Positions 41,133 to 63,600 of a DNA stretch of 64,000 bases are shown here, piece by piece. Position 1 is the stretch's first letter. Each line of letters starts with the position of its first letter. The stretch comes from Arthrobacter sp. PAMC25284. GTDB lineage: Bacteria > Actinomycetota > Actinomycetes > Actinomycetales > Micrococcaceae. Location: contig NZ_CP080382.1 of the NCBI RefSeq assembly GCF_019443425.1, positions 1 through 64,000 on the forward strand. The letters are read 5' to 3'. Under the pieces are notes generated by a model. The model was not told the DNA's origin and did no database searches. It saw nothing but the letters and a program-made list of their open reading frames with translations. The position numbers and the translations under genes were made by a program.

Positions 41133-42101
41133 GTGGATCCCGGCCTCGGCACGACGGCGGCGCAAGCCTTCCCGATCGACTGGAACCATATCGATGAATG
41201 GGATTCGGACAACGGCGTCGCAAAGCTCACTGCGCCGGCCGGGGCATCAGTCACTTCACTTCCGGCCCAGGATACTTACGTCGTCTTTGAGTCAGCCCTT
41301 CGCGATGGACTGCCACTCAGGATGCTCTTTGAGCCGGCGAACAGTGACACACTGGTGATTTCACTGCACGGGGCAATGAACCGTGCTCGGTTCACGGTGC
41401 CCCGGTTCGAATGGCGCCGCACGCTTAACCGTCTCGACTCGGCCAGGCTCTACCTCTCTGACAGTACCCTCGAGATCAACGGCTCCCTGGAAATCGGCTG
41501 GTATATCGGCACTGAAGGCCAAGATCTCATTGCCGAATACGCGGCTGTCGTCAACCAGATCATTGCTGCCGGTGGCTACTCAAGGGTGGTCTGCATCGGC
41601 AGCAGCGCAGGCGGATATGGCGCACTTGCCCTGTCCCGCCGAATCCCCAACTCCGTGGCCGTAGCGTTCTCGCCCCAGACCACCATTGGCGGCTATCACC
41701 TGGCTCATCGAAAGGCGTTAGCATCAGCCGCCTTTCCGCGGCACAAATCCTATGAGCAGGTCGAGGAAAATTTCGGAACCAGAGTCAATTTGCGCAAGCT
41801 TTACCAAGAGATGCGCCCGGTCAATTTTGTGCACTTTGTTCAAAACACTGGTGACCAGTTCCATTTTGAGGCCCATTATGTGCCGTTCGCCTTAGCGAAT
41901 GGTGTCAACCCGGACAAGGGCGGCTACGACCCGCGACGGAGAGTAAATTTTGTGGCTGAGCGCTACGAAAACGAGCATGCACCTCCCGCGCGGGGGTACT
42001 TCCTTGCTCATATCCAACAGGCGCACTTGAACTTCTATGGCCGGGAGCTCCCTCTCAGGCCCTCCGATCCAGTACGTGAAGCAGAACTAGGACCACGATG
42101 A
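41133..42101 (+). CDS. Asp2-like serine hydrolase/acyltransferase, first of three in the window
   Basis: 322 aa from GTG 41133, with GGGAGG after the previous stop. Alpha/beta-hydrolase features: strand LVISLHGAMNRARFT, nucleophile elbow VVCIGSSAGGYGALALS, then AFSPQTTIGGY, then QNTGDQFHFEAHYVPFALAN. The same three elements (GSSxGG, xPQT, D-x-x-H-[FY]-x-x-H-x-x-PF) recur at 49112-49940 and 62821-63600. No signal peptide, so it acts in the cytoplasm or with a membrane partner. Similar proteins (Asp2, XcbA-region proteins) modify glycans; de-/acetylation of the polymer is inferred. Overlaps the next gene by 4 nt. Confidence 0.72.
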   Translation: MDPGLGTTAAQAFPIDWNHIDEWDSDNGVAKLTAPAGASVTSLPAQDTYVVFESALRDGLPLRMLFEPANSDTLVISLHGAMNRARFTVPRFEWRRTLNRLDSARLYLSDSTLEINGSLEIGWYIGTEGQDLIAEYAAVVNQIIAAGGYSRVVCIGSSAGGYGALALSRRIPNSVAVAFSPQTTIGGYHLAHRKALASAAFPRHKSYEQVEENFGTRVNLRKLYQEMRPVNFVHFVQNTGDQFHFEAHYVPFALANGVNPDKGGYDPRRRVNFVAERYENEHAPPARGYFLAHIQQAHLNFYGRELPLRPSDPVREAELGPR

Positions 42102-43552
42102 CATTATTGCCCTGCCTTCCCGCAAACGCGGAGCTGAAACGCCTGTTGTATAGGAACGGCTTCGTCGTGTCTAAGTCCCCGGCTGAAACTCCTTCGCTGG
42201 CCGGCTGGAAGACCGTGCCACTGGGCGATTTGTATCTGACGCTGCATCCGGAGACCCGGTTTGTCACGGCCATCGCGGACGGGCGGCATCTCGCGCTGGT
42301 GGGGCAGGCTTTTGACCCGGAATATGGGATCTATCAGGAGGGCGTTGTCCTGGCAGCCCTCCTGGATGCCGTAGCCAACGACGAAGATTTTTACGCCGTT
42401 CTCGACCGGCTGGCGGGCAGGTTCGCGCTGATTGTCCAGATGGACGGCAGGACCGAGATTTATCAGGACGCGATGGGATCCAGATCCGTTTTTTACTCCA
42501 CAGCCGGGGCGCCCATTGCAGCGTCACACGCCGAGATCGTGGCTGACTTAATCGGCGCGCGCTTCGCGGACTATTTCGTGCCATTTCTTACCTCGCGAAA
42601 TTATCAGCAGCGGGATGTGAAGTACCTGCCAGGCGTCGCGACCCCCTACGACCACGTGGTTCAGCTGACGCCCAACACCAAGCTGATCATGCCGCACCAA
42701 ACGGTCGAGCGCTTCTGGCCCCGGGAAGACATCGGAATGGAGACGACCAATGAGGAAGCAACTGCAGCCTTAGTGGCGCACCTGCATGGTCTTCGCTGGT
42801 ACTTGGCGATCAACGGACGGCGCCCGGTGCTGGGTTTGACGGCAGGCACGGACAGCAGGGGCGTCTTTGCCGCCACGAAGGACAGCAACCCGGTCATCTT
42901 CACCTACGTACGCAGCGAAGCGGCCAATACGACAAGCTCGCCGGACGCCCGTAGGGCGTCGGAAATCGCTGGAGCCTATGGGTTGGAAGCGCAGGTCTGG
43001 CCCATCCACAACCGCCTCACACTCAATCAGACGGACAACGCGCTATCAGAGGCGTTCCGACGGGCCACCGCCTATTATCGAGGGCCGGGCTCGCCATGGC
43101 TCGGGCGCTTGGCGGCGACAGGGGAAAAGGTGCGGGACGGACTCTTTATCCGGGGCTTCGGCGGCGAGGTGATGCGTGGCTTCTATCAGAGCCAGGAGAA
43201 GCGGATTACCAAAGTCAACGTTCAGCAGCTTTCAAATGCCTATGACGTCAACGCCGGTTCGCGCATCACTCGGGGCTTTTTCGAGGACATGATGAGCCGG
43301 GTGTCTTTCACAGCTGACTCGCTCAAAGGTTACGACCCTAACGACATTTTCTATTGGGAGCACAGGATGGGAACCTGGGGGAGCGTGTCCATGTCTGAGG
43401 CCGATCTGGCGATGCCGTCAATGGTGGCGTACAACTCCCGCAATCTTTTCAAGACCTTTATGGCGCTGCCGCAAGCGGTGAGGGCCAGCAGATCGGCCTT
43501 CGAGGTGGCCACCCTCGAGTTGGCCCCCGCCCTGAAAGATCTCTGCTCCTAG
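42098..43552 (+). CDS. Asparagine-synthase-like protein without the glutaminase cysteine
   Basis: 484 aa. The N-terminal half follows the Ntn/GATase II plan (FDPEYGIYQEGVVLAALLDA, LAGRFALIVQMDGRTEIYQD AMGSRSVFY), but the mature protein starts MTLLPC, without the Cys-2 that glutamine hydrolysis needs. The C-terminal half has a synthetase-like loop GLTAGTDSRGVFAATKD in place of SGGLDS and later GFGGEVMRGF. It would adenylate a carboxylate, perhaps the uronic acid made by the WecC-like enzyme, and use ammonia or another amine (inference). Last gene of the operon; overlaps the hydrolase by ATGA. Confidence 0.72.
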   Translation: MTLLPCLPANAELKRLLYRNGFVVSKSPAETPSLAGWKTVPLGDLYLTLHPETRFVTAIADGRHLALVGQAFDPEYGIYQEGVVLAALLDAVANDEDFYAVLDRLAGRFALIVQMDGRTEIYQDAMGSRSVFYSTAGAPIAASHAEIVADLIGARFADYFVPFLTSRNYQQRDVKYLPGVATPYDHVVQLTPNTKLIMPHQTVERFWPREDIGMETTNEEATAALVAHLHGLRWYLAINGRRPVLGLTAGTDSRGVFAATKDSNPVIFTYVRSEAANTTSSPDARRASEIAGAYGLEAQVWPIHNRLTLNQTDNALSEAFRRATAYYRGPGSPWLGRLAATGEKVRDGLFIRGFGGEVMRGFYQSQEKRITKVNVQQLSNAYDVNAGSRITRGFFEDMMSRVSFTADSLKGYDPNDIFYWEHRMGTWGSVSMSEADLAMPSMVAYNSRNLFKTFMALPQAVRASRSAFEVATLELAPALKDLCS

Positions 43553-43561
43553 GACGGAAAA

Positions 43562-43597
43562 GTCCGTTTCGAGACGCGGCGGCGTCTCGAAACGGAC
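43562..43597 (+). terminator. Bidirectional-type terminator between operon end and GH gene
   Basis: 16-bp perfect stem (43562-43577 with 43582-43597) around GGCG, 10 nt after the asparagine-synthase-like stop. It lies between two convergent genes and can serve both. Confidence 0.75.
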
Positions 43598-43640
43598 ATG
43601 ACGAACGGTAACCGGGGATACGGTGACAGCCCGCTTTGGC

Positions 43641-44510
43641 TTAGAGTGAGGCGTAGAGTCGGCCGGTGCTGGTCAGGGTGCCGTCCGTGTTGTACAGGGC
43701 TGAACGCCCCATCACCGGGTCGCTAATAGGCCGCGTCTTCCACGCGAATCGCTCAACGAACGGCATCTGTCGCATTCCGGCTACGGTTGCCCGCATGAAG
43801 TCGTTGGTCTGGGTCCTGCTGTAGCGGCTGGGGCGGGTTGACGTTGCCCTCCAGTCTGCTACCGCATACTCGGTCACCCACACAGGCTTGCCATACTTTT
43901 CATGCAATGCGGTGACCTTGTTCAGGAAGTCCTCGGCGTTGGGCCAGGCATAGCAATGCATGGTCACGAAATCGACGCGGAGTCCACGGTTCTTGGCCTT
44001 GGACATAAATTCCTGAAGCCACTGGCTTGAGGGATTCGCTGTCGCGGGCGATCCGAGCCTCAGCCCGGTTGCCTGAAGTTTGGGCCACAGGCTGATCGCC
44101 TGGTCTACAGTCATGTTCGCCTGGGACCGGACGTCCGGCTCATTGAACCCCAGAAGGTTCTTCGACTTGGTGAGAGGCAACTGGCTGGTGGCGTACTTGA
44201 TGGCTCCCTGGTCCAGGGATTTCGCGCTCCGGATCATCGGCACGAAACCTGGCGTGGTGGTTACGGTGTATTTAGAACCCCAGGAGTAGTACCAGCTGAG
44301 ATTCAGGCTCTTAATCTGCCGGAGTGCCAAAGCATCAGTACCGGCGTGGCCAACGCCCTTCAGCGCTTTGACGACCGGGAGCACCGTTGGGGACATTGCC
44401 ATGCCAGGCTGTAGAAGGGCCGCCTGCGCCGGGACGGCGTTGGCCGCGAGGAGTGCGCCGGGGGCGGCCATTGCGGCGAGGGGGATCGTGAGAAACTTTC
44501 GGCGCTCCAT
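43641..44510 (-). CDS. Secreted glycoside hydrolase, GH128-like
   Basis: 289 aa. The N-terminus ERRKFLTIPLAAMAAPGALL, ending AQAA, looks like a Tat-type signal. The (beta/alpha)8 catalytic core has NLSWYYSWGSK, LLGFNEPDVRSQANMTVDQA (acid/base Glu in GFNEPD), RVDFVTMHCYAWPN and GKPVWVTEYAVADW (nucleophile Glu). This is the pattern of GH128/Asl1-type endo-beta-glucanases. It is convergent with the polymer operon and may trim or release the surface glycan, or digest foreign glucan (inference). Confidence 0.8.
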   Translation of the reverse strand: MERRKFLTIPLAAMAAPGALLAANAVPAQAALLQPGMAMSPTVLPVVKALKGVGHAGTDALALRQIKSLNLSWYYSWGSKYTVTTTPGFVPMIRSAKSLDQGAIKYATSQLPLTKSKNLLGFNEPDVRSQANMTVDQAISLWPKLQATGLRLGSPATANPSSQWLQEFMSKAKNRGLRVDFVTMHCYAWPNAEDFLNKVTALHEKYGKPVWVTEYAVADWRATSTRPSRYSRTQTNDFMRATVAGMRQMPFVERFAWKTRPISDPVMGRSALYNTDGTLTSTGRLYASL

Positions 44511-45023
44511 AACGACCTTTCTGGAATAGTTGGCTGACGCTCATAGTGTGGCGGATGCGGCGCCGGCAGATCTCCGGACCTGCGTCACATACAAAAGGGT
44601 AGGTCGAGAGACAAATTAGCACGGCCGGCCCAGGCTGAAGCGTGATTCGGCCGCAGGATTAGCGTAGTTTTGACCCCTGTCATCAGCTATCCGGACCAGT
44701 CCGGGGGTTTATCGATGATCATTGCTGGCGCCGAGACCAGTCTTGCCCGCAGACGTGGGGTAGCGGAGACACCTGGAGATTTGCCTACTCCTGATCTTCG
44801 CGCGCGTGACCCAGATTCTCTAGGTTTGCGCGAGATCGCCACAGGTGACGCCCCGCGGGACCCCGTGGGCGCAATTCCGAGCCTCGGGACCTCCGGCTTT
44901 GGTAGCATGGCCTGTGGTTCCCTCGCCCCATGGCAGCTCACGCTTGTGGTTCCCTAGCTCCTTACGGCTCCTCACGCCTCTGGTTCCCTAGCCGCTTATG
45001 GCTCCTCACGAGATCGCAGGTCT
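44511..45023. other. Intergenic region upstream of the giant glycosyltransferase
   Basis: 513 bp between divergent genes. I see no convincing gene. Its end (44913-45012) is a three-copy imperfect repeat listed separately. TTGACC at about 44668 could be a -35 element, but no good -10 follows. Confidence 0.4.
44913..45012. repeat. Three imperfect copies of a ~33-bp unit
   Basis: Units start TGTGGTTCCCTCGCC (44913), TGTGGTTCCCTAGCT (44945) and TCTGGTTCCCTAGCC (44979); the last two end GGCTCCTCACG. They end 11 nt before the ATG of the giant glycosyltransferase, so they form its 5' leader. Possible roles are a regulator array or simple slippage. Confidence 0.7.
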
Positions 45024-48000
45024 ATGAAGTTCAAGATTGTCAATTACCAGGCCCACCGGATCAGCGGTTGGGTGTACGAGCCTGGCGCCGATCAGGGAAC
45101 GACAGTACTGGACCTCATGGTCAACGGTGAAGTAGTCTCCACCCTCACCTGCAATATCTTCCGCGACGAACTTTCTGCTGAGGACTTCAGTACCCGAAAT
45201 GTGGGTTTCCTGGGTACCCTGCCTCCGCAGTTCTGGAACGGTGAACAGCACGACGTCGCTCTCGTGCACCGCGGGACGGGCAATGTCCTTACGCAGAAGG
45301 GGATCAGTACATCTGATTCCCGGATCGCCGGCGCGGAGGACCTCAGTGCCGACTTCATGGTCACCCCACGGGGCCAGGTGGCCGGATGGGCCAGCGTCGA
45401 AAATCTTCCAGCGTACGCCCGAGTGACAGTTGACGGCACGGTCGTTGACCTAGCGAGAACTGACCGACGCGTCCTTCCATGGAAGCGCGACACGTTGAAA
45501 TTCGACGCCCCTTTCGGCTATATGCATGGCGCCCAGATTCCTCCAGAATTCTTCGATGGACAGGTACACCGGATTCAGGTTTTCGCCGGTAGTGAGCCGC
45601 ACGCGCCGGTGGCGGTGTTGGACCAGATGCTGGAGCTTGCTGCAGAGCACCGCGATGCCGCAGCTCGCGAAGCGCAACAGCTCCAGCATGAGGCACCGGA
45701 TACTTCATCCCCGTGGCTGAAGCCTGCCCGGGTGCATCCCGACATACACGTTGCTCACATAGCACTGACGGAGTCCTATGCCTCGGTCACGCTAACGGGG
45801 GAGACTGGGCATCGGCGACTGGTCCTGCGGCTAGGCGAGGCTGCGGTGATCCTGACAGCACTGGCTGGGCCTCCCGAAAGGGGCCCCGGCGGCCGGGGGG
45901 GGCCAGCGGTATTCCGGTGCGATCCCACTCGAGGGCAGGTTTACGGACTCCATCCAACTGTTCACCCCGGGGGCAGAAGTTGGCAGTACCTATGAACTCC
46001 GCCTCGGAGATACCACCGGACGCAGGCCGGCTGGCATGCCAGAAACAATCGTTCAGGACACTGAAGGAGAGTTCCTGCTCTCCGAGGTTGTCCTTGACGG
46101 GGGAGTTTTCACCGGGTGGGCTTTTCACACGGCGGGACTCGACTTCCCCGTGGAACTGGTCCTACGTGAGATTACCGAGACCGGAGAGACGGAGGTCCAC
46201 CGGACGGCCGCAACCCTGAAGAACAGACACTCGAAACTGCACCATGGAATTTCACGGTCGGGCTACGCTCTCGCTTTGCCTTCCTCAGTCTTACTGCGGC
46301 GCAGCGCTCATCTGCAGCTGCTCGCCGTACACGGGCGAGGGGAAAGGCTGCTCTGGGAGGACACATCTTTCTTTGCCACCAACCAGTTCCTGCTGGCGCA
46401 GGCCCTCCAGGCTTCCTCGTCATCCCATGCCCTTCAGCTTGTGGGAAATGCCCGCCGAGCCGGACGCAAGCACTTCGTCGAGTCATTCCTAGGAACCTAT
46501 AAGCACTCCCGGGCCCAGATTAGCCTGGAGGGGTTGGAAGGTGCCATCGCTCCTCAGAGTCAGGGCACCGGCGCGACGCTCGAGCCAGCTCTCGGCGCAA
46601 TCTGGTACTGGGTTCAGGAGCTGCGCGTAAATCCAGGTCGACTCCAGTGGTTCACTGTGAACGCGATCCGCAACCGCAACGGTGGCGCTCGGGACGTGCT
46701 GGCCTATGCCGCGTCCAAGGGGCGCTATGACTTTGCCCAGCTCCATGGGATTCTCGAGTCCTACCGGACAGAGCTCTTTCGTGAATCCGCCACCGAGATG
46801 CTGGGAGATAGGCCCTGGACGTCCGGTTTGCTCGCTATGGCCCGGTTTCTCTTTGCCGCACCCCGGGACGAGACTGACCACCTTGATGCGCTGACTCTGT
46901 ATTCGATGCTCGAGGCAGGGCGGGGGCTGCAGGAGATCACCGGTGCCGATCGTGCCTTCTATGGAGATCTCCTTCGGTGGCGCGGAGAGTTCGCGGAATC
47001 TGCCCGGGTGCTCACCACGGAAGACCCTGAAGCCGATCATGACTTCTCGCAGAACTTGCTGGCCCTCAACGCGCTCAACCCCCACGTGGCAGGCATTCCC
47101 GAGTACTCGCGTGCCTGGTTGGCAGGTTTCAACGAGATGCTCGAGGGAGATGGCATCGCTCCAATCTCGATGCAGCACGACGAGATCGGTTTCTACAACG
47201 TCACTACGGACCTTCCCCCAGCTGCTGAGGATCCGGGAGCTCCGCTGGTAACGGTCATTATGCCAATTTACGAACCCAGCGCCGCTACTAATATTGCAGT
47301 GGATTCCTTATTACGGCAGACCTGGCGCAAGCTTGAGATCATCATTATCGACGATTGTTCACCCGAACGGGATGCGGATGGTCAACCTACGCCATACAGG
47401 CGACAGCTTCAGGACCTTGCAGCACGGGATCCTCGCATCCGCCTGGTGCTCAACGCGGTAAACCGCGGCTCCTACTCCGTGCGTAATGATGCTCTCGACC
47501 TCGCCACAGGTGACCTAATCACCGTGGCGGATAAGGATGATTGGCACCACCCTCAGCAGATCGAGCTTCAGGTTCGCGATTTCGTGGCCAGTCCTGAACT
47601 TGTTGCGAATATGACCAACTGGGTCCGCGTGGACGAGCAACTTATTCTCATGCTGCGGTCCGCCACGGGTCGGGTTGTCTACCCTTCAATGGCCTCGTTG
47701 ATGTTCCGACGTGATCCGGTGCTGGAGGACCTCGGATACTGGGACACGATCCGTAAGTCCGGAGACTCAGAGTTCAAGAGCCGCATCGAGAACTACTACG
47801 GCATCACGGTGGAGCCGGTTACCACGGCACCCCTTGCTTTCGCCCTTATGGACGGTGCAAACCTCACCCGCGATGACATGGGGGTGGGGTATCTTGCCCC
47901 AGAACGCCGAGCTTACCTTCGTGGCTACAAGAGTTGGCATCGCGAGATCCGTGAATCCGGGGAATCGCCCTACATGCCCAAAATCTTGGCAGAGCGGCGC

Positions 48001-49122
48001 TTCGTGGCCCCGGATGCATACCTTCCGGGAACCCGGTCGGTCGGGCCCACGCAGTATGATGTCATTTTCGCGTCTGAGTTCGGTTTTCTGGCCGGCAACT
48101 CCACGTCACTCTTCAATGAAATCTCCGTCTGTTTGAACGCTGGACTCCGGGTGGGTGTGATCCCGTTCCAGAATGGCTTGATCCCCTCGGCTTCCAAGCG
48201 TCAGTTCAGCCGCAAAATAGATGACTTGGTGCTGACTGGCAAGGTGGACCGCCTGTCGTTGGACACCGTAGCTGAGACCGACCTGCTTATTGTGCGGTGG
48301 CCCACTGCGCTGCAGGTCGTACCGGACGCACCAGCCGCGGTGAAGCCCAAAAAGGTCGTCATCGTTTCCAACCATCCGCCGTTCGAACCGAGCGGCGAGA
48401 GGCGCAGCTACGACATCGGCGTTGTCACCCGAAATGTCGAGGGCCTCTTTGGCGTCCGCCCACTTTGGGCCCCCCAGAGCGAACAGATCGGGGCAATGAT
48501 CGCGCCGCTCATGCCCGCGTCAGACCTCACGAGCTTCTCTTGGAAGGGCATCATCGAGCTGAAAGAGGATGCGACGAAGAATAGGTACAGAGGCGGTGTG
48601 CCGACCATCGGACGTCATGCCCGTGATGACGCCGCAAAGTGGCCATCGGATCGAAAAGTCTTCACCCAGGTATACCCGGCCGATGGCTCCGCGAACGTTT
48701 GCATCCTTGGTGGTACCAAGGTGCCCGTGCAGAAGGGCTTCCTCTCAAGGAAGCCGCTCTCTTGGGAGATCTACGCCTTCAACGAGATAAGCGTGGAAGA
48801 GTACCTGTCGGAGAAAATCGACTTCTTCGTTTACTACCACAGCGACGGCTGGCTCGAAGCCTTCGGCATGGCTATTCTCGAAGCCATGAGCTACGGGGTG
48901 GTGTGTGTGTTGCCCCGGCACTTTGAACCAGTGTTCAGAGATGCGGCTGTTTATGCGCAGCCGGATCAGGTGCAAGCGGTCATCCGTCAGCTTTGGGACT
49001 CCCAGAATTATGCGCTGCAGCAGCAGCGCGCAGTCCGATTCATCCAGCAGGAATGCACTCCGGCGGCGTATCTGAAACGCCTCGCCGGACTCGGCGTAGA
49101 GGTAGAGCAGAGTGAAGGCTAA
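45024..49122 (+). pseudogene. Giant modular glycosyltransferase (beta repeats + GT2 + GT4), apparent frameshift at about 45900
   Basis: About 1365 aa if one base in the run of eight G at 45895-45902 is removed: the first frame ends at 45995, and the second is open upstream of its ATG at 46036 through QLFTPGAEVGSTYELRLGD. Order: three similar beta units (ISGWVYEPGADQG, QVAGWASVENLP, VFTGWAFHTAGLD, each followed by a strand pair), a helical region, GT2 (PLVTVIMPIYEPSAATNIAV, EIIIIDDCSPERD, DLITVADKDDWHHPQQIEL), then a GT4-like C-terminus (FVYYHSDGWLEAFGMAILEA). The GT2 part is paralogous to 38873-41119. The beta units may bind carbohydrate (inference). Confidence 0.75.
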
Positions 49123-49940
49123 GAAAACATCAATCAAGCATCTGGACAGCGTTCCTCGCCACGTGTGGCAAGGGCCGGCTGACCTCGACCTCCGGGAGCG
49201 GGGTCTCTATACCGAGCACGCCGAAGGTGAGCAGTTTGATTTCATTTTCGATCCCAAGCCGCAGACGGGACGTCTGGTTATCTTTTTCTCCGGAGACGCA
49301 CGACGGAGCACGTTCGAGCCGCCAGTATTTCAGCGCTGGAGTTGGGGCCTCTAAGTTTCCGGCCAGCTGCCTGTACTTTTCAGATCCTGCGCTCTACCAC
49401 AACAGCAATCTTGGACTCGCCTGGTATGCAGGCAACCGCCAGGGTGACTACCTTGCGCATATTGCCCAGATAGTGGCCTCAGTAGCGACCGCTATTGGCG
49501 CCGACCAGGATCAAGTCTTCTCCTATGGGTCCAGTGGAGGAGGATTCGCAGCGCTCCGCTTCGCGCGCTACTACCAGGGGCTCCAGGTGATCGCGATCAA
49601 CCCGCAGACGGACTTGTGGAAATATCCCGTCAAATGGACCAACCGCATGTCGAAGGTTTGCTACAACGCAGACGATCTTGGGGGAGTCCCGCACGATCAG
49701 GCGTATAAGTTCACGGCTCTTGATCCTGACGTGATGGCGGGAGCGCGCAGTATCTTCCTAGCGCAGAATGTTCAGGACACGGACCATTACGAGAACCATT
49801 TCACGCCCTTTAGAAAGTACGTAGAGTCCTCCGACCACTCAGAGAAGCTCATAGTCCGCGAGTTTTCCGATGAGTCCGGCCACGCCGGTGCGGAAAACGC
49901 AGAAGTGTTCTCCGAACTGCAACAGCACATAGTTCGATAA
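49112..49940 (+). pseudogene. Asp2-like serine hydrolase, second of three; apparent frameshift at about 49345
   Basis: GTG 49112 overlaps the end of the giant glycosyltransferase. The first frame (RLVIFFSGDARRSTFEPPVF QRWSW) stops at 49354. Removing one G from GGGG at 49344-49347 continues it as ASKFPASCLYFSDPALYHNS to the stop at 49940, about 275 aa. It has the shared elements: FSYGSSGGGFAALRF, AINPQTDLWKY and QNVQDTDHYENHFTPFRKYV. As with 41133-42101 it directly follows a GT2-containing enzyme, so glycosyltransferase and hydrolase appear as a repeated gene pair. Confidence 0.7.
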
Positions 49941-53123: not shown

Positions 53124-53351
53124 CCTGACTTGGCTCATTTGTGTGTGATCGACTATCTGTAGGCCGTTTCAGCCAGGAATTTGAGCCAAGTTGGTGGCTC
53201 GTTTCAGGCCAAAAGAGCGGTAAGAATCAGGCCAGTTTTTCCCGAAATCATGGTTTCGGGGGCTTGCCTGGATAGAGATCACCGGGTGGCCGGCGCCCTT
53301 CCCAGAGTGTCAGGGACATGGGGCCCGCCACCCCCAGATAGGTTCCTTACG

Positions 53352-54760
53352 GGCTCTTCCACTTTTGACGTGGTGGCAGGTGTTCAGCATGCCTGTTGGG
53401 CTGCCGTGTACAACAATAACCGGAGCCGGTAATGCTCATGATTCCGGTATCCGCGGGCGGCCCGTTTGAGGTTCTTGGCGCTGAGGTTCGCCGCCTCGCT
53501 GCGTGCATTTGTGACCCTGGTCCGGCAGAACGTGAGCAGCTCCTTGCGCCACATCTTCAGGGTCGTGAATAGTGATTTGGCCTCCCGCATTCTGGTCGCT
53601 TTGACGGCGTGTTCGAGTTCGGCCCAGGCGCGGTGGAAGCCGTCGATGTGATCGGTCTTCAGTAGTTGGCGGACGTGTTCCTTGATGCCCCAGATGACGC
53701 CGAGCTCAACGTCGGAGGCGATGATTTCCTGCATTCTTCCGCGCTGGGCGGAAGACATGTTCTCCTGGTTGCAGGTCAGCAGTTTCCGGTATTTCCAGGC
53801 CGGATCCGTGGCCCGGCCCCGCCGGCCGTGGAGGTCATGCGCGCGGCGCCGGCGGACCTCGGTGACCATTTGGTTCGCCCGCGCCACCACGTGCCAGTGG
53901 TCCACGGTGATGGCCGCCTTGGGCAGAACCTTGCGGACGGCCCGGCGAAACTCGGTGGACATGTCCATCGCCACCAATTCGACCCTGTTGCGCCACCAGC
54001 GCGGCCGGGCTCCGATCCAGTCCCGCACCGCCTGGCCGCGGCGGCCGTCCACGATGTCCAGGATCGCCCCGGTGTCCAGGTCCGTGAACACGATCGACCA
54101 GGGCTCCACCCGGGTGACTTTGCCGGCTTCGTTTTTCAGGTACCGGACCCGACGGAAGCGATGCTCGTCAACGCCCAGCCGGCGGACCAGTCTTCGGTCC
54201 ACGCCGCCGTCCACCACGGCCGTGTCCTCCATGACACGCATGACCGTCGTCCACGACACACCCGAGGCGCCGGCCACCCGGGACACGGCCCGAAGCTCCG
54301 CGGACAGGGCAGCGACCATGCCGGCCACCAGCCTGCTGGTCAGCCTCGAACGCAGCGGAATCTCATCGGTGGTCTGCACGAAGGACCGGCGCGGACACTG
54401 CGGTTCCAGACACGCCAGCCGTCGCTTCCGGACCCTGACCTCCACCGGCGACCCGCCACACGGGACGTCCCGGACCCGGTGGACCGGGCGGGCCTGGATC
54501 CGGGAGGACATCACGCCGCAGTCAGGGCAGGCTCCTTCCCGCTCGATCGGCTCGACCAGCACAGTGCGGGTGTCGCCGGTACGCTCTGCGGAGAGCACAA
54601 CATGGCCCTCCAAATTGAACAGAATCGACGCGGCATCGCGCGTCTGCGTAATCTGTAACAAGGCTCGTAGTCCTCAGCAATAGATGTCTCGACAACACCT
54701 ATGCTCGCAGGGCTACGAGCCCCTTCATTTGAAGGACGCCACGCTAAAAGTTGATGAGCC
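53352..54760 (-). mobile_element. ISL3-family element, copy 1 (1409 bp)
   Basis: Identical by eye to 59577-60985 in opposite orientation. Ends GGCTCTTCCACTTTTGACG and (complement) GGCTCATCAACTTTTAGCG form imperfect inverted repeats. The 8-bp target duplication TCCTTACG lies at 53344-53351 and 54761-54768, as expected of ISL3. It is inserted in the region between the left end and istA of IS21 element A and so may alter istA expression. Confidence 0.93.
53384..54661 (-). CDS. ISL3-family transposase, copy 1
   Basis: 425 aa, intact. N-terminal zinc-binding part: ACPDCGVMSSRIQARPVHRV and LACLEPQCPRRSF. A helix-turn-helix follows (RVAGASGVSWTTVMRVMEDT). The DDE catalytic domain has RRLGVDEHRFRRVRY, VELVAMDMSTEFRRAVRKVL, KAAITVDHWHVVARANQMV and LEHAVKATRMREAKSLF. 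The start is TTG 54661, immediately after a CTACGAGCC arm of the leader hairpin; the same protein is encoded at 59676-60953. Confidence 0.93.
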   Translation of the reverse strand: MLQITQTRDAASILFNLEGHVVLSAERTGDTRTVLVEPIEREGACPDCGVMSSRIQARPVHRVRDVPCGGSPVEVRVRKRRLACLEPQCPRRSFVQTTDEIPLRSRLTSRLVAGMVAALSAELRAVSRVAGASGVSWTTVMRVMEDTAVVDGGVDRRLVRRLGVDEHRFRRVRYLKNEAGKVTRVEPWSIVFTDLDTGAILDIVDGRRGQAVRDWIGARPRWWRNRVELVAMDMSTEFRRAVRKVLPKAAITVDHWHVVARANQMVTEVRRRRAHDLHGRRGRATDPAWKYRKLLTCNQENMSSAQRGRMQEIIASDVELGVIWGIKEHVRQLLKTDHIDGFHRAWAELEHAVKATRMREAKSLFTTLKMWRKELLTFCRTRVTNARSEAANLSAKNLKRAARGYRNHEHYRLRLLLYTAAQQAC

Positions 54761-54813
54761 TCCTTACGGCGCTGCCATTGCGAAGCGTATGCGCCGGAAG
54801 GGCTGGAAAGCAG

Positions 54814-57020: not shown

Positions 57021-57113
57021 CCAAAACGCTGAAATGGCCTGGAAACGTGCCGAGGTGGCCTGATTCTTAGCGCTGAAATGGCCTACTTAAAGTTGACGAA
57101 ACACATCATTTGC

Positions 57114-57479
57114 TTAGTGCGTGAAGTTCGGGCTTTGGATGGCGTCGAGGATGGCTTGCTGGTCGGCGGCGATGTCGGGCGCGAATGTCTGGGTGGTGCC
57201 GTTGATGGCGATGGTTGCCGAGCGCAGCGGCCGGAGTTGCTTGACCACGTTCGCGATGGCGAGCCCTGTTCTGTTCTGGACGGTTCGGGAGAGGGCAAGC
57301 GCGGTGAATACGATCGTCAGGTGCGCCTCGATCGCGTCCCGGGTGCGGTGGAACATGGGCCTGGCACGCAGGTCCGTCTTGCTCATTCGGAAGGACTGCT
57401 CGACGTGCCACAGTTCGTGGTAGGAGCCAATGACTTCTGACGAGGCCATGACGGCCGCGGGGATGTTCGTCACGTAGCC
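57114..57479 (-). pseudogene. IS1634-like transposase, C-terminal fragment
   Basis: Reads VTNIPAAVMASSEVIGSYHE, LWHVEQSFRMSKTDLRARPM, FHRTRDAIEAHLTIVFTALA, the conserved end of IS1634/IS4-type transposases including the YHELWHVEQSFR catalytic-Glu region. It continues exactly from GLKGY of the fragment at 61109-62380, across the IS21 element B insertion and its GTAGCC target duplication. Stop at 57114. Confidence 0.88.
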
Positions 57480-57613
57480 TGTCAATGGCCAATTGTTTGT
57501 GCCCACGGGCGGCCAGCAAAAATGCCCGCTGGTGGCCATGAAAACTGCCCACTCATGGCCACCAGATCTGCCCACCGGGTGTTCGGCGGCGTTGGCCATG
57601 TTGGGGTGCGGGT

Positions 57614-58033
57614 TTAGTTCATTGGGGTGACTCCTTTTCCGGCCAGGGCCTGGCTGAGGCGGATCGATTCTCCTGAGGTTTGGCAGACGTGCGCGTGGTG
57701 CAGCAGCCGGTCGACGGTGGCGGTGGCGAGGGTTTTGGGCATGAGCTCGTCAAAACCGGCCGGATGTAGGTTCGAGGAGACCGCGATGGAGCGCTTCTCG
57801 TAGGCGGCGTCGACGAGGCGGTAGAGCCCCTCGGCCGCGTCGGTGCCCACCGGCAACAGGCCTATGTCATCGACCACCACCAAATCTGCCCGCAGGATCC
57901 GGGCGACAACTTTGGTAACGCTGTCATCGGAGCGGTGGGCGCGCATGAGAGCGCCGAGGTCCTCGAGCCGGAACCACGCGACCCGCAGGCCGGCCTCGAC
58001 GGCCTGTTGAATACTGGCTTCCAAGGGAGCCAC
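57614..58033 (-). pseudogene. IstB C-terminal fragment of IS21 element B
   Basis: About 139 codons: VTKVVARILRADLVVVDDIG LLPVG (Walker B), AYEKRSIAVSSNLHPAGFDE and ATVDRLLHHAHVCQTSGESI. The Walker A half is missing because the upstream part was replaced by foreign IS21 sequence at about 58034. It cannot be an active ATPase. Confidence 0.85.
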
Positions 58034-58440
58034 CTGCCGTGCGCTTCAGAGCCAGCTGCCCAGATCGCGGATCGTATCGTTCAGCGCCACGATTGGCGTG
58101 GTTGAGAGCCACCTGAAAAGCTCCTCCCACCATGTGATGGCCACGTGGTGGGAGGAGTACCGGTAATGGTACGGAAGATCAAGGCGAAACTTGTCTTGCA
58201 GTTACGAAATCAGGGTTTGTCAGGCAGGTCGATCGCCTCGGCTCAGGGCATCGCGCGCAATAGCATTCAGGCGGTGCTCGATGCAGCGGACCGGCTCGGC
58301 GTCGTCTGGGATGACGTCGCGGAGCTGTCGGAAGCCGAGGTGTATGCGGCCGTGTTCCCTGGCCGCGGCGTTTATGAGAGCGTCTTCGTGCAGCCGGACT
58401 GGCCCCGGGTTCACACTGAGTTGGCCCGGGTCGGGGTGAC
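58034..58440 (+). pseudogene. IstA N-terminal fragment of a third IS21-family element (C)
   Basis: From ATG 58166 it reads MVRKIKAKLVLQLRNQGLSG, RSIASAQGIARNSIQAVLDA, then LSEAEVYAAVFPGRGVYESV and WPRVHTELARVGVTL, the start of a different IS21 subgroup. It then runs into the antisense of element B istA at about 58437. Its leader contains CTCCTCCCAC/GTGGGAGGAG, a stable hairpin (58112-58158). It lies opposite to, and replaces, the istA-istB junction of element B. Confidence 0.75.
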
Positions 58441-59547
58441 GTTGATGACCTGCTCGTCGGGCCCGGCGCCGTGGGCGCGGACGAACACCCGGGAGCCGAG
58501 CAGATACGCCGGAACGGAGTATTGGCCGTTTTCGAAGGTGACCATTGGTGTGTTCTCCGGGACGGTGCGGGAGAGCCCGAACGCGACGGTGTGCGCGGCG
58601 TCCGGGATCCGGTGCAACCGCGGCGCCTCCTCGGTGAGCATCGCGGCGGGTTTGCGCCGGGTAGCCCGGTGTTCACGATGGTTGACCTCGTCCATGAACG
58701 ACTGGCACGCCTGTTCGAGCTCGGCGAACGAAGCGTACTCGGCACGCAGGTTGGTGTCCTTGGGCACGATGTCTGCCTTGGCGAGCTTCACCGAGGACTC
58801 CACGCCGCCCTTGGACGCAGGATCCGCCGGCTGGCAGGTCAGCACCGTCACCCCGTAATGGCGGGCGAAGTCGACCGTCTGCTGGTTACGGACCGGGACC
58901 CCGGCAACGTGGGACACCGTCACGGTCTTCTCGTTATCCGTCAGAACGTAGGTCGGGGCGCCGCCCAGGACCCGCAAGCTGCGGTCAAGAGCTGCGAACA
59001 CACTCGGCGCCGTCCGGTCCCGCAGCGCGATCACGATCCTGAAGCGGGACCAGGCCAGCCAGGCCACGAACAAAACGGTCTTCTTCCCCTCGATCACGGG
59101 GCCGTCGCCGAAATCGTACTGAAGCCACATGCCCGGTTCCGTGATCCACGGCCGGTGCACCCGGACGTGGCCGAGCCGCCAGGCGGCGCGGACCTGGGCG
59201 ACGGCCCGGCGGGTTGAGCGCTCCGAGCCCTCGTAGCCGAGGGCCAGGAGTTTCTGGTGGGCTTTGTCGGCGCGGATCTTGCCCTTGGAGGCCTCGATCC
59301 ATTCCTCGATCTTGGGCAGGAACGCATCGGTGACCCGGCCCCGGTAGACCGGTTCGGCGATCGGCTGGCCCGCGTCCCTGGCAGCGACGTGCCTGGCGAC
59401 CGTGTGGTGCGAGCAGCCGGTGAGTTCCGCGGCGGCGCGCAACGATCCGGTCAGATCATACGCAGCAAGTATTTCCATGATTTCTCCGTCAAACTTCATT
59501 AGGGCCTCTTCCCGGGCGACTTTGGTGCGACTAGACACCGTCATCAA
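58411..59547 (-). pseudogene. IstA of IS21 element B, 3'-truncated
   Basis: 378 codons of a normally longer transposase. HTH part: LRAAAELTGCSHHTVARHVA. Integrase core: MWLQYDFGDGPVIEGKKTVL, PTYVLTDNEKTVTV and PASKGGVESSVKLAKADI, so all three DDE acidic positions are present. The C-terminal domain breaks off after GAGPDEQVINVTP, where foreign IS21 sequence begins. ISL3 copy 2 is inserted about 30 nt upstream of the start. Confidence 0.88.
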
Positions 59548-59615
59548 ACCCCGGGGAGAGGCTCCCGCCGCTTAAGGGCTCATCAACTTTTAGCGTGGCG
59601 TCCTTCAAATGAAGG

Positions 59616-59675
59616 GGCTCGTAGCCCTGCGAGCATAGGTGTTGTCGAGACATCTATTGCTGAGGACTACGAGCC
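59616..59675 (+). promoter_or_regulatory. Leader inverted repeat of ISL3 transposase
   Basis: GGCTCGTAG (59616-59624) and CTACGAGCC (59667-59675) bracket the leader and end right before the TTG start codon. The same arms occur in ISL3 copy 1 and in the unrelated-sequence ISL3 remnant at about 52669-52732, so the pairing is conserved between different ISL3 members. It could be an RNA hairpin that limits translation or an internal transposase site. Confidence 0.45.
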
Positions 59676-60953
59676 TTGTTACAGATTACGCAGACGCGCG
59701 ATGCCGCGTCGATTCTGTTCAATTTGGAGGGCCATGTTGTGCTCTCCGCAGAGCGTACCGGCGACACCCGCACTGTGCTGGTCGAGCCGATCGAGCGGGA
59801 AGGAGCCTGCCCTGACTGCGGCGTGATGTCCTCCCGGATCCAGGCCCGCCCGGTCCACCGGGTCCGGGACGTCCCGTGTGGCGGGTCGCCGGTGGAGGTC
59901 AGGGTCCGGAAGCGACGGCTGGCGTGTCTGGAACCGCAGTGTCCGCGCCGGTCCTTCGTGCAGACCACCGATGAGATTCCGCTGCGTTCGAGGCTGACCA
60001 GCAGGCTGGTGGCCGGCATGGTCGCTGCCCTGTCCGCGGAGCTTCGGGCCGTGTCCCGGGTGGCCGGCGCCTCGGGTGTGTCGTGGACGACGGTCATGCG
60101 TGTCATGGAGGACACGGCCGTGGTGGACGGCGGCGTGGACCGAAGACTGGTCCGCCGGCTGGGCGTTGACGAGCATCGCTTCCGTCGGGTCCGGTACCTG
60201 AAAAACGAAGCCGGCAAAGTCACCCGGGTGGAGCCCTGGTCGATCGTGTTCACGGACCTGGACACCGGGGCGATCCTGGACATCGTGGACGGCCGCCGCG
60301 GCCAGGCGGTGCGGGACTGGATCGGAGCCCGGCCGCGCTGGTGGCGCAACAGGGTCGAATTGGTGGCGATGGACATGTCCACCGAGTTTCGCCGGGCCGT
60401 CCGCAAGGTTCTGCCCAAGGCGGCCATCACCGTGGACCACTGGCACGTGGTGGCGCGGGCGAACCAAATGGTCACCGAGGTCCGCCGGCGCCGCGCGCAT
60501 GACCTCCACGGCCGGCGGGGCCGGGCCACGGATCCGGCCTGGAAATACCGGAAACTGCTGACCTGCAACCAGGAGAACATGTCTTCCGCCCAGCGCGGAA
60601 GAATGCAGGAAATCATCGCCTCCGACGTTGAGCTCGGCGTCATCTGGGGCATCAAGGAACACGTCCGCCAACTACTGAAGACCGATCACATCGACGGCTT
60701 CCACCGCGCCTGGGCCGAACTCGAACACGCCGTCAAAGCGACCAGAATGCGGGAGGCCAAATCACTATTCACGACCCTGAAGATGTGGCGCAAGGAGCTG
60801 CTCACGTTCTGCCGGACCAGGGTCACAAATGCACGCAGCGAGGCGGCGAACCTCAGCGCCAAGAACCTCAAACGGGCCGCCCGCGGATACCGGAATCATG
60901 AGCATTACCGGCTCCGGTTATTGTTGTACACGGCAGCCCAACAGGCATGCTGA
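59676..60953 (+). CDS. ISL3-family transposase, copy 2
   Basis: 425 aa, identical to the product of 53384-54661, with the zinc-binding N-terminus, helix-turn-helix and complete DDE domain. Intact, so the element is probably still active in this genome. Start TTG directly after the leader hairpin arm. Confidence 0.93.
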   Translation: MLQITQTRDAASILFNLEGHVVLSAERTGDTRTVLVEPIEREGACPDCGVMSSRIQARPVHRVRDVPCGGSPVEVRVRKRRLACLEPQCPRRSFVQTTDEIPLRSRLTSRLVAGMVAALSAELRAVSRVAGASGVSWTTVMRVMEDTAVVDGGVDRRLVRRLGVDEHRFRRVRYLKNEAGKVTRVEPWSIVFTDLDTGAILDIVDGRRGQAVRDWIGARPRWWRNRVELVAMDMSTEFRRAVRKVLPKAAITVDHWHVVARANQMVTEVRRRRAHDLHGRRGRATDPAWKYRKLLTCNQENMSSAQRGRMQEIIASDVELGVIWGIKEHVRQLLKTDHIDGFHRAWAELEHAVKATRMREAKSLFTTLKMWRKELLTFCRTRVTNARSEAANLSAKNLKRAARGYRNHEHYRLRLLLYTAAQQAC

Positions 60954-61108
60954 ACACCTGCCACCACGTCAAAAGTGGAAGAGCCCGCTTAAGCGGCAGG
61001 GTTCAGTAAGGAAGTGGGCAGATCTCATGGCCACCGACGGGCAGTTTTCATGGCCGTCAGTGGGCAGTTCCGTGGCCGCCTATGGGCAGTTTTTCATGGC
61101 CGCTAACA

Positions 61109-62380
61109 GTAGCCCTTGAGGCCGGCCAGTTGCCGGGCACGTGTCAGTGATGCCTCGTCCAGGCTCCGCGCCCCGCCGCTGGTCTTGACGAATCGCGGGG
61201 TCCGGGCCGCTTTCTGGCCGTCAATGACTTCACGGGCTCGGCTCTCCTGAAGCGCGAGGGTGGCGGTATCACGGGCGGCTCTTTTGCGGGAGTAGGCCCA
61301 CACGGCCCGCCACGAGCCGGGGTGCGTTCCGGGGTCCCAGACGGGTTCGGCGCGGAGGTCGGGATTGTTCTCGTTCCTGTGGCCAGTTCTGGGGGTGAGG
61401 GTGTCGATCAGCTGCCCGTCGGTAAACGCGTCGCCGTGCCAGCGGAAGTGCGAGGCCAGATCGGCCGGGGCCTTGGTCATCCGGGAACCGACGATGAACC
61501 GCAGGTCCGCCTCATCCAGCTCACGCAGGTTCGAAGACGAGAGCATGCCGGCGTCCGCGACGACAACCATGTCGGCCAGGTTGTGGCGGGCCTGGAACTG
61601 CTTGATGATCGGGACGATGGTCGCGGTCTCGGCCTTGTTGCCTTCGAAGCAGCCGATCTCCAGCGGGAACCCGCCACGGTCCACGAGCAGGCCAACCACG
61701 ATTTGCGGGTCGACGCGACGCTCCTTGGAGTACCCGACCTTTCGCAGTTCATCTTCCTTTTCGGCCTCGAAGTACAGCGTGGTGACGTCGTAGAGCACCA
61801 GGGAAACATCCCCGCTGGTGCTGGCGTGCTGGAAGCACCAGGTCGCGATCAGGTCGCGGTACTTACCCGCCCCGGCCCGGCCAAGGGTGCGTTTCATCGT
61901 TGCGTAACTGGCCGGGGCCCGGCCCAGGTCCCGCAGGACCCTGCCGGTATCAAGCAACGATGTCGGTTCCACGACCCGGGCGATCACTAAGTCGCGGAAC
62001 ACCTCATCACCGAGACCGTCGAAGCCCAATGCCGTAAACACCCCGGCCAACGCACCGAACAGGATCCGCGAGTCGGTGCCGACCACGCGACCCGGACCGT
62101 CACGGCCAGCAGGCACCGCCGTGCCGGCCGCGGCGAACAAGCCCGACCCTACCGGGGTGACCAGCGCCTTCACCGGCGGTGCCGGAACGACACCAAGATC
62201 GAAAACACCCTGGGCCGGGTCCTCCAGCAGCTCACTGGCGCGCTGGAGCAGCACGCCGAGCTCGGCTTCCGAATGCGCCGATCCGATGTGCTCCACGATC
62301 CGCTGACGGCCCCGCACGTACTCGGCGATCTGCACCGCCGTCGCTCCCGAGGCCGTCAGCACCCGCCTGATGAACACCAC
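61109..62380 (-). pseudogene. IS1634-like transposase, N-terminal fragment
   Basis: About 424 codons from ATG 62380: MVFIRRVLTASGATAVQIAE, RQRIVEHIGSAHSEAELGVL, VSLVLYDVTTLYFEAE (first catalytic Asp region), GGFPLEIGCFEGNKAETATI and MVVVADAGMLSSSNLRELDE (second Asp). It breaks at RARQLAGLKGY, where IS21 element B begins. The missing end is at 57114-57479. Confidence 0.9.
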
Positions 62381-62492
62381 ACGGCGACCCTAGGCCAAAT
62401 CCTTAGTGCGTGAAAAGACACAAATCAGAACACATCACCGCAGGTCACAGCCGCAGCCCATCCCCAAGTCACGCCCCGTGAGCCAAGTCAGG

Positions 62493-62760
62493 TTAAGAGA
62501 TACAAGCCTTCAAACCCGCCATCAATGCCATGCTGACGGGAGACCTCAGCGCCAAGGAAGCAGCACCATACCGCCCGCAGGGAATTGGCCCGGCTGATCG
62601 AGGAGCACGGAGGGGAGGATCCGTCGTATTCCAAGGTGCGTGACTACGTGCGGTTCCGCCGGGCGCAGATCGATGTGAAAGTCGGCCGCCGGGTTGAGGT
62701 TTTTGTGCCACAGGGACACGAGCCAGGCGCTGAACTCCCGAACCCACATTCCCCGAATGG
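62493..62760 (+). pseudogene. IstA internal fragment of a fourth IS21-family element
   Basis: In two frames it reads KPAINAMLTGDLSA and then APRKQHHTARRELARLIEEH, GGEDPSYSKVRDYVRFRRAQ, IDVKVGRRVEVFVPQGHEPG, a standard IstA segment just before the DDE core. A small deletion at about 62552 breaks the frame. It ends where the AT-rich hydrolase region begins. Confidence 0.7.
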
Positions 62761-62820
62761 CCCTCGACCTGTGCTAAAACCCCCACGATACTCGACATTG
62801 TATAATACAACAGAGATTGG

Positions 62821-63600
62821 TCAACTTAGTATTGAGTTGAGTGTGGAAAACAAGAATCCCGGAAAATACCTGCCTACCTCTGAATGGAGTTCATATTCCT
62901 GAACATCCAAAACATGATCTGCGCCCATTTCTTTAAGAAGCTCGACAAAAGGCACTACATGACCTTTATAGTGGTGATCTCCTCTGCCTACGTGCAAATA
63001 AATCTGTGGTATATAAGTTGCTCTCTCTAGTTCAATAGGTAGCAACGTATTTAGAAATTCCCTATCCACGTCGGACAGTCCTCCAGAGATGTATTCTCCT
63101 ACATCTCTATGGTTATTGAAAACAAAGTTCCCCAGTCTAGTTTGAGGAGCCGCGGAAATGACATGGCCAAAACTGTATTTTATGCCAAAATATAGTGCTG
63201 CAAACCCGCCTTTGCTAGATCCCATTGAAATAATATGCTTAGTATCGAATCCGTGTTCTCTACTCAGATCCCTAATAAGCGCGATTACAGATTCTTCCAC
63301 CGCAAAATCTCTATTTCGCCCTAAGTAGTAACTAGCTGACGGACCATACTCGTCCAAAATAAATAGTCTATTACAAGCTACAGGAGAAAGTGTTCTAACA
63401 TAATTATAGACTGGTGAATGTCCGATTTTTGGGATGGCAGAAAATACAACTATCAGATATTTGCTTTCAGTTGTTGATTTCTGAAACAAATAGTGAAGCT
63501 TGAGTTTAGCTTTATCGTAGCTCCTCTCACCAGGAAACCCGGAACCTTTAACTTCTTCAAACTCGATGCTATCTGTTGTCTCGGAATCAAAATTTGTCAT
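62821..63600 (-). CDS. Asp2-like serine hydrolase, third of three (AT-rich, probably transferred)
   Basis: 259 aa, intact. Shared elements: KHIISMGSSKGGFAALYFGI (nucleophile elbow), VISAAPQTRLGNFVF and HVGRGDHHYKGHVVPFVELL. Upstream parts are YLIVVFSAIPKIG and RLFILDEYGPSASYYLGRNR. No signal peptide. Unlike every other gene here it is AT-rich with many ATA, AGA and TTA codons, pointing to acquisition from a low-GC donor. It is stranded beyond the IS pile, away from the glycosyltransferases its homologues follow. Confidence 0.75.
   Translation of the reverse strand: MTNFDSETTDSIEFEEVKGSGFPGERSYDKAKLKLHYLFQKSTTESKYLIVVFSAIPKIGHSPVYNYVRTLSPVACNRLFILDEYGPSASYYLGRNRDFAVEESVIALIRDLSREHGFDTKHIISMGSSKGGFAALYFGIKYSFGHVISAAPQTRLGNFVFNNHRDVGEYISGGLSDVDREFLNTLLPIELERATYIPQIYLHVGRGDHHYKGHVVPFVELLKEMGADHVLDVQEYELHSEVGRYFPGFLFSTLNSILS

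What the first reader, a model, noticed from the sequence alone, without database searches (positions are those of the whole stretch)
41133..63600. Three divergent Asp2-like hydrolases share an unusual motif set and pair with giant glycosyltransferases
The proteins at 41133-42101, 49112-49940 and 62821-63600 have little overall similarity, yet share GSSxGGxxAL, a following xPQT (SPQT, NPQT, APQT) and D-x-x-H-[FY]-x-x-H-x-x-PF. The first two directly follow paralogous GT2 enzymes (38873 and 45024), so glycosyltransferase plus hydrolase looks like a repeated functional unit. The PQT and HxxPF elements are not part of the generic alpha/beta-hydrolase pattern. The unit may add or remove acyl groups on a surface polymer during chain growth.
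Basis: partly seen in the sequence, partly recalled or inferred. Interest (0 to 1): 0.72.

Follow-up and report, generated by a model that had tools for sequence, protein, structure and literature searches.

The report
Probable O-acetyltransferases paired with glycosyltransferases
An Arthrobacter-like bacterium carries three related enzymes, beside the enzymes that build a surface sugar polymer, that share the unusual active site of a protein known to attach acetyl groups to a bacterial capsule, so they probably acetylate sugars rather than act as generic hydrolases.

Summary
The motif set is real and largely explained. Models of proteins A (pLDDT 90.5) and C (91.9) match CsaC first and an Asp2-type chain close behind. 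Gln lies 24 residues after Ser in all three; the aligned Asp2 and XcbB/CpsF chains lack it. Corrections: the triad base is probably a later His (A: H282), not the His of HxxPF; C's acid is shifted by one residue; B and its partner glycosyltransferase (GT) are each split by a frame change, though an intact unit exists in a related genome. The pairing holds: among 150 genomes of the genus, A-type enzyme and A-type GT occur in the same nine, always adjacent. Similar pairs occur in Alphaproteobacteria, once as one GT2-GT4-enzyme polypeptide; other members are fused to heparinase-like, C5-epimerase, hexapeptide-transferase or DUF6270 domains. Against: 23 of 80 surveyed loci showed no GT nearby. Best reading: cytoplasmic O-acetyltransferases modifying the polymer before export. 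Activity, donor and substrate are untested.

The parts
38873..41119 (+). GT2-domain glycosyltransferase (748 aa from 38873), partner of A
   Evidence: PF00535 E 9.3e-24; same type adjacent to the A-type enzyme in the 9 genomes of 150 that hold it
41133..42101 (+). Protein A, 322 aa (GTG start; the frame has an ATG at 40944): predicted alpha/beta-hydrolase-fold polysaccharide O-acetyltransferase
41502..41504 (+). A Y124 = CsaC Y79
   Evidence: PMC7501274
41604..41606 (+). A S158, nucleophile = CsaC S114
   Evidence: after strand 151-157 of the model
41676..41678 (+). A Q182 (the PQ element) = CsaC Q138, Gln extension of the triad
   Evidence: after strand 174-179
41853..41855 (+). A D241, probable triad acid = CsaC D198
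   Evidence: after strand 231-238
41862..41864 (+). A H244 (DxxH), probable counterpart of CsaC H201, which positions the Gln
41874..41876 (+). A H248 (His of HxxPF): conserved, role unknown, no counterpart seen in CsaC
   Evidence: 85 of 95 domains; CsaC segment printed
41976..41978 (+). A H282, probable triad base = CsaC H228
   Evidence: 91 of 95 domains; after strand 271-276
45024..45995 (+). N-terminal piece of the second giant GT, split from the rest by a frame change
   Evidence: tblastn with the intact 1381-aa relative of G050, 81% identity in this piece
45856..49122 (+). Main piece of the second giant GT (GT2 domain plus weak GT4-like C-terminal match, below cut-off); first ATG 46036
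   Evidence: PF00535 E 1.6e-20, PF00534 E 0.0024; 82% identity to the G050 relative
49112..49354 (+). N-terminal piece of protein B (GTG start overlapping the end of the GT), ends in a stop
49227..49940 (+). Catalytic piece of protein B in another frame: Y67, S103, Q127, D184, H187, H191, H219 counted from 49227
62821..63600 (-). Protein C, 259 aa: Y92, S129, Q153, D208, H239; predicted CsaC-type enzyme
34827..36137 (+). UDP-N-acetyl-D-mannosamine dehydrogenase of the same locus
   Evidence: NF008286 532.5 bits against cut-off 459
31139..32017 (+). ABC-2 exporter membrane subunit
   Evidence: PF01061 E 3.5e-9
31977..32891 (+). ABC exporter ATPase; best NCBIfam matches are teichoic acid exporter ATPase models, below their cut-offs

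Best explanation
A, B and C are (or, for the broken B, were) cytoplasmic sugar O-acetyltransferases with an alpha/beta-hydrolase fold and the Gln-extended Ser-His-Asp active site of CsaC. The serine (A S158) takes an acetyl group from a donor, most likely acetyl-CoA; the Gln (A Q182), held by H244 and Y124, positions the acetyl-serine; the His (A H282) activates a hydroxyl of a polymer sugar and the acetyl group moves there. A acts on the product of the GT encoded just before it, B on the product of the second giant GT (both broken in this genome), and C within a third set (two GT4-type GTs, a heparinase II/III-like enzyme, C). Modification happens before export by the ABC transporter of the locus. 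Shown here: homology, predicted fold, conservation of the site, gene pairing and fusions. Inferred: cytoplasmic place (no signal-peptide test was run), transferase rather than esterase activity, acetyl-CoA as donor, the acceptor (perhaps a polymer with ManNAc or ManNAcA, since the locus holds a UDP-ManNAc dehydrogenase and the genome's only PF02350 UDP-GlcNAc 2-epimerase lies about 19 kb beyond the window) and the timing.
Against: No activity, donor or acceptor was tested. CsaC and the Asp2-type chain differ by less than 1 in Z for both models, a tie by the aligner's rule. The CsaC residue that orients the acceptor (R148) has no fixed counterpart: R193 of A is kept mainly in its closest relatives. 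The YNY stretch of CsaC that holds the CoA nucleotide is present in C but replaced in A (PRFEW) and not seen in B. In C and its family the acid-to-His spacing differs (the D241 column is Asp in only 48 of 77 rows once the C family is included); 17 of the 85 intact sites have Phe where CsaC has the Tyr whose hydroxyl holds the Gln. Not all members sit with GTs: 23 of 80 loci showed no GT2/GT4 hit in the DNA held (my small profiles, some contigs cut), and a Paenarthrobacter locus has an MFS transporter, a chaplin-like protein and a subtilase as neighbours. CsaC itself hydrolyses acetyl-CoA slowly, so an esterase role is chemically near. Distances in the models could not be measured (coordinates are not given).
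Confidence: 0.68

Rival explanations
1. They are de-O-acetylases (esterases) that trim acetyl groups from the polymer or its precursors, using the same triad with water as acceptor.
Against: The Gln extension, needed for full transfer activity in CsaC, is conserved and was not seen as Pro-Gln in ordinary hydrolases of the same genome (0 of 35 frames); CsaC ranks above every listed esterase for both models.
Confidence: 0.15
2. They transfer an acyl group other than acetyl, or modify a lipid-linked or nucleotide sugar instead of the polymer.
For: The CoA nucleotide-binding stretch of CsaC is not kept in A (PRFEW instead of YNY); the acceptor-orienting Arg is variable; partner domains are very varied.
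Against: The catalytic core and the Ser that contacts the CoA arm are kept; the two relatives whose papers I saw (CsaC, Asp2) are acetyltransferases.
Confidence: 0.12
3. The GT association is only a by-product of all being in large, mobile polysaccharide islands; the enzyme does not work with its neighbour GT.
For: Islands are rich in GTs; the tree needs 8 changes of the GT-adjacent label; B's catalytic domain groups with proteobacterial ones (97% SH-aLRT) while the place of its GT is unresolved (support 40); 23 of 80 loci show no GT.
Against: Adjacency in 9 of 9 genomes (match ends under 220 nt apart), mirror-tree r 0.69 with 0 of 2000 permutations as high (24 pairs, chosen because they are adjacent; genomes not corrected for kinship), and a single-polypeptide fusion.
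Confidence: 0.12

Closest known systems
CsaC (SacC/MynC), capsule O-acetyltransferase of Neisseria meningitidis serogroup A (PDB 6yuo, 6yuq, 6yus, 6yuv)
   Same: alpha/beta-hydrolase fold; Ser, His, Asp, Gln at Ser+24, Tyr, and (A, B) His at Asp+3; Ser before the nucleophile; gene beside polymer-building enzymes
   Different: 11-12% (A) and 20% (C) identical over the aligned structures; acceptor Arg not fixed; CoA nucleotide stretch differs in A and B; extra conserved HxxPF; partner is a GT2-type giant GT, and fusions occur
Asp2, O-acetyltransferase of the accessory Sec system (PDB 6lnw chain B named Asp2; 6oyc chain B named Glycosylation Associate Protein 2, its Asp2 kinship recalled)
   Same: fold (next match after CsaC for both models); Ser, acid, His; acetylates sugars laid down by partner GTs (PMC5578698, PMC7948813, passages seen)
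   Different: Leu at the Gln position in the 6lnw chain aligned; chain of 511-519 residues; role in export; no accessory Sec genes were looked for here
XcbB/CpsF family capsular polysaccharide biosynthesis proteins (NF033892; PDB 9hvz, whose deposited names mention ACoA)
   Same: C matches the NCBIfam model (E 7e-11) and its family profile matches the solved chain (E 3.3e-12)
   Different: below the family cut-off (41.9 of 125 bits); Ile at the Gln position in the aligned chain
OatC (CssE) of N. meningitidis C and ORF5 of the E. coli K15 capsule locus
   Same: capsule O-acetyltransferases (K15 ORF5 predicted) placed in the alpha/beta-hydrolase family with GxSxGG (PMC7387560 passages)
   Different: not compared by sequence here

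Membership tests
Gln-extended alpha/beta-hydrolase acetyltransferases (CsaC class) | alpha/beta-hydrolase fold closest to CsaC | tested here: met
   best PDB match of both models; the lead over the Asp2-type chain is under 1 Z, a tie by the aligner's rule, for both. B was not modelled
Gln-extended alpha/beta-hydrolase acetyltransferases (CsaC class) | Ser nucleophile, Asp acid and late His base in fold order | tested here: met
   A S158, D241, H282; C S129, D208, H239; positions after the expected strands. B by sequence only
Gln-extended alpha/beta-hydrolase acetyltransferases (CsaC class) | Gln 24 residues after Ser, with partner Tyr | tested here: met
   A, B and C; CsaC S114/Q138, Y79
Gln-extended alpha/beta-hydrolase acetyltransferases (CsaC class) | His three residues after the acid (H201) that holds the Gln | tested here: inconclusive
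   met in A and B; C reads D-H-H-Y, so which His serves is open
Gln-extended alpha/beta-hydrolase acetyltransferases (CsaC class) | acetyl transfer from acetyl-CoA to a polysaccharide | not testable with these tools
   needs an assay
CsaC proper (same acceptor specificity) | acceptor-orienting Arg R148 | tested here: not met
   no fixed counterpart; possible stand-in R193 in A and near relatives only. So not filed as CsaC itself
Asp2 (PF16929 / TIGR03712) | score above the family cut-off | tested here: not met
   C 23.6 of 28 (Pfam) and 23.4 of 210.75 bits (NCBIfam); A and the B piece not listed
Asp2 (PF16929 / TIGR03712) | accessory Sec locus | not tested
   no search for accessory Sec or serine-rich adhesin genes was made
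XcbB/CpsF (NF033892) | score above the family cut-off | tested here: not met
   C 41.9, B piece 21.8 of 125 bits; A not listed

The most novel reading that the evidence does not exclude
Giant GT and Gln-extended O-acetyltransferase form a dedicated two-part (in one case one-chain) polymerising machine in which each new sugar is acetylated as it is added and the acetyl group decides what the GT may add next, much as O-acetylation by Asp2 limits later glucose addition on adhesins. On this reading the Gln-extended fold is a general, exchangeable 'sugar-acetylating head' that bacteria have repeatedly joined to GTs, C5-epimerases, heparinase-like enzymes and other transferases.
Probability: 0.25. 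Interest if true: 0.75.

Novelty: new variant of a known kind. Interest (0 to 1): 0.52.

Why it matters
The CsaC authors asked whether adding a glutamine to the Ser-His-Asp triad is a general way to turn hydrolase-fold esterases into transferases (PMC7501274). Here the same network turns up in Actinomycetota, Pseudomonadota and a few loci of other phyla, with a GT nearby in 57 of 80 loci and in one case in one chain with the GT. That gives Arthrobacter strains in which the question can be tested, a way to annotate proteins now called 'alpha/beta hydrolase' or 'hypothetical', and a predicted O-acetylated surface polymer for this lineage.

Tried and rejected
Asp2 as the main label: set aside, because CsaC ranks first for both models (within a tie) and the aligned Asp2 chain has Leu at the Gln position. 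XcbB/CpsF as the label: below cut-off, and Ile at that position in the aligned chain. The His of HxxPF as triad base: set aside in favour of the later His on fold order and the CsaC comparison. B as a copy of A by tandem duplication of the unit: not supported; B's catalytic domain groups with proteobacterial ones (97% SH-aLRT), and the place of its GT is unresolved (support 40). B as one working protein by programmed frame change: unlikely, since the relative in G050 is one open frame; a sequencing error in the window cannot be excluded. A wider survey in the phylum listed 23 of 296 genomes with a match, many short and centred on the Ser motif, so it was not used as evidence. A family-level search with C found relatives in 44 of 197 genomes. 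phmmer of the B piece against the PDB gave a TAL effector repeat protein, an antibody and a linker protein as best hits, taken as chance. WHR(Q/E)IR as a marker of the GT type: fails beyond near relatives. Paper searches listed no title that I recognised as dealing with the Arthrobacter enzymes or with GT fusions of them; subscription papers are not held, so this is weak.

Full report
What is there. The window is the first 64 kb of a single 3.88 Mb contig; the nearest named relative of protein A is from Arthrobacter sp. C9C5, 77% identical. From about 28 to 84 kb of that contig lies a large polysaccharide region, interrupted by insertion elements: an ABC exporter whose ATPase is nearest to teichoic acid exporter models, below their cut-offs (31139-32891), a UDP-ManNAc dehydrogenase above its NCBIfam cut-off (34827-36137), several glycosyltransferases (GTs), and the genome's only PF02350 UDP-GlcNAc 2-epimerase at 83062-84090. 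Proteins A (41133-42101), B (49112-49940, in two frames) and C (62821-63600, minus strand) lie in it. The first two follow GTs with a GT2 domain. C follows, on its own strand, a heparinase II/III-like gene, which follows two GT4-type genes (L206).

Are the three related? Yes. A alone finds B and C in its own genome (E 4.3e-11 and 6.0e-4) and the profiles of the A and C families match at E 3.4e-16. Pfam sees only weak generic hydrolase matches in A and the B piece and a sub-threshold Asp2 match in C; NCBIfam gives C and the B piece sub-threshold XcbB/CpsF matches.

What the motifs mean. The profile of the A family hits SacC as its best solved structure (E 0.002); that of the C family hits it at E 1e-28. 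SacC is CsaC, the capsule O-acetyltransferase of N. meningitidis A. Of its structure paper (PMC7501274) I saw the abstract, sections 10-13 and 15, and passages. CsaC uses S114, H228 and D198, and, unusually, Q138 held by H201 and Y79; loss of Q138 costs 96.8% of the transfer activity in the presence of polymer. Ser to Gln is 24 residues, acid to H201 is 3. In A these six are S158, H282, D241, Q182, H244, Y124; in the piece of B S103, H219, D184, Q127, H187, Y67; in C S129, H239, D208, Q153, one uncertain, Y92. So GSSxGG is the nucleophile elbow, PQT holds the Gln extension, and DxxH is acid plus Gln-holding His. The second His and the PF of HxxPF have no counterpart that I could see in the CsaC segment printed; 85 of 95 domains keep that His and its role is unexplained.

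Conservation and control. In the 21-row alignment A3 S158, Q182, D241, H244 and H282 are invariant. In 77 rows including the C family (A and C counted twice), the S158 column is Ser in 75, Q182 Gln in 72, H282 His in 77, H248 His in 73, but D241 is Asp in 48 and H244 His in 61, because the C family differs there. In 95 domains from 80 named loci, 85 have Tyr/Phe, S, Q, D, H, H (68 with Tyr, 17 with Phe); spacing Ser-Gln is 24 in 89 of 93; where Asp and His are both there, spacing is 3 in 77 and 2 in 12 of 89. The loci were found with the Ser motif, so Ser counts are not evidence. Control: from 53 loci of generic hydrolase hits in the same genome, 0 of 35 GxSxG frames have Pro-Gln at this place and 1 has Gln (some frames antisense). 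In the aligned Asp2 chain (6lnw) the Gln column is Leu, in the XcbB/CpsF chain Ile.

The GT pairing. In 150 genomes of the genus (own genome included), 28 hold a relative of A (E <= 0.001); nine of them hold an A-type enzyme (E <= 1e-60), and the same nine hold an A-type GT (E <= 1e-100); in all nine GT and enzyme are neighbours on one strand, match ends under 220 nt apart (in one, G102, the GT is in two frames). Over the 80 named loci, with small profiles that I built, 57 hold a GT2 or GT4 in the DNA held, 28 a GT matched by the profile of the window's GT pair, 23 a UDP-GlcNAc 2-epimerase; 33 have a GT next door on the same strand, 19 of them with one of the window type (14 upstream, 5 downstream), and 8 have an epimerase next door. 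In Paracoccus fontiphilus (L180) GT2, GT4-like and enzyme domains form one 1207-aa frame. On a tree of 89 domains the GT-adjacent label needs 8 changes, at least 5 of them forced by strongly supported branches, against a shuffled mean of 21.3: the pairing is clustered yet arose or was lost several times. Distances of GT and enzyme in 24 pairs correlate (r 0.69; 0 of 2000 permutations); the pairs were chosen for adjacency. Against: 23 of 80 loci showed no GT, and the Paenarthrobacter locus examined has none among its scanned neighbours.

Other partners. Enzyme domains are fused to heparinase II/III-like domains (L047, L048 and, below cut-off, L136 on the A side; L197, L198, L201, L202 on the C side), DUF6270 (L038, L039, L041, L129; L205 on the C side), C5-epimerase (L109, L111) and hexapeptide transferase (L042). 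C itself is separate but next to a heparinase-like gene, and these four relatives from the same taxonomic family are fused to one, which links the two.

The broken unit. The intact 1381-aa GT and 280-aa B relative of G050 match the window in two frames each (81% and 82% for the GT pieces; 86% and 72% for the B pieces). In G102 the GT is one 1406-aa frame, but the B relative has Arg in the catalytic Ser column and lies elsewhere, after a 484-aa GT fragment. Of the three genomes in the sample of 150 in which one search lists this second GT, only G050 has both parts whole. Whether the window's frame changes are real or errors is open.

Mechanism and rivals. By analogy with CsaC: acetyl-CoA loads the Ser, the polymer sugar takes the acetyl group. 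Nothing was assayed. Asp2 offers a precedent for function: O-acetylation of GlcNAc by Asp2 limits glucose addition by partner GTs (PMC7948813 passages; PMC5578698 passages). That is the base of the bolder reading that acetylation steers the partner GT. The esterase reading and a different acyl donor remain possible; the CoA nucleotide stretch (YNY) is kept in C but not in A.

Verdict. A real, well conserved feature with a known mechanistic template, in a setting (giant GT2 partners, a one-chain fusion, Actinomycetota) for which the paper searches named under Tried and rejected listed nothing. New variant of a known kind.

Noticed in passing
53350-54760 and 59577-60987: Two identical 1411-nt inverted copies of what looks like an insertion element, 4816 nt apart, with an IstB-like gene at 57614-58033 and other transposase-like frames between and beside them; they lie between the GT-enzyme units and C.
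   Followed up: partly
42098-43552: 484-aa protein directly after A with no Pfam or NCBIfam match; a 530-aa frame without Pfam match follows the A-type enzyme in L030. By eye it recalls asparagine synthase-like proteins; no call supports this.
   Followed up: partly
43641-44510 (minus) and L206 11182-12075 (minus): Two glycoside hydrolase catalytic core proteins (PF11790) in the same region, one between the two GT-enzyme units.
   Followed up: no
62001-64000: G+C is 0.504 around C, the lowest of the 32 blocks (others 0.520-0.722), and the nearest named relative of C is from Oceanobacillus kapialis (56%), which suggests recent acquisition.
   Followed up: partly
L033 18186-19016: B relative in genome G102 has Arg in the catalytic Ser column and lies after a 484-aa GT fragment: a second decaying copy of the unit.
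   Followed up: partly
41874-41888: The HxxPF element (A H248, P251, F252) is highly conserved in this branch but has no evident counterpart in CsaC; its role is unexplained.
   Followed up: partly
L039, L038, L041, L129, L205: DUF6270 (with a weak GDSL lipase match in L039) is fused to A-type and to C-type domains in either order, which hints that DUF6270 is itself an acyl-handling partner.
   Followed up: no
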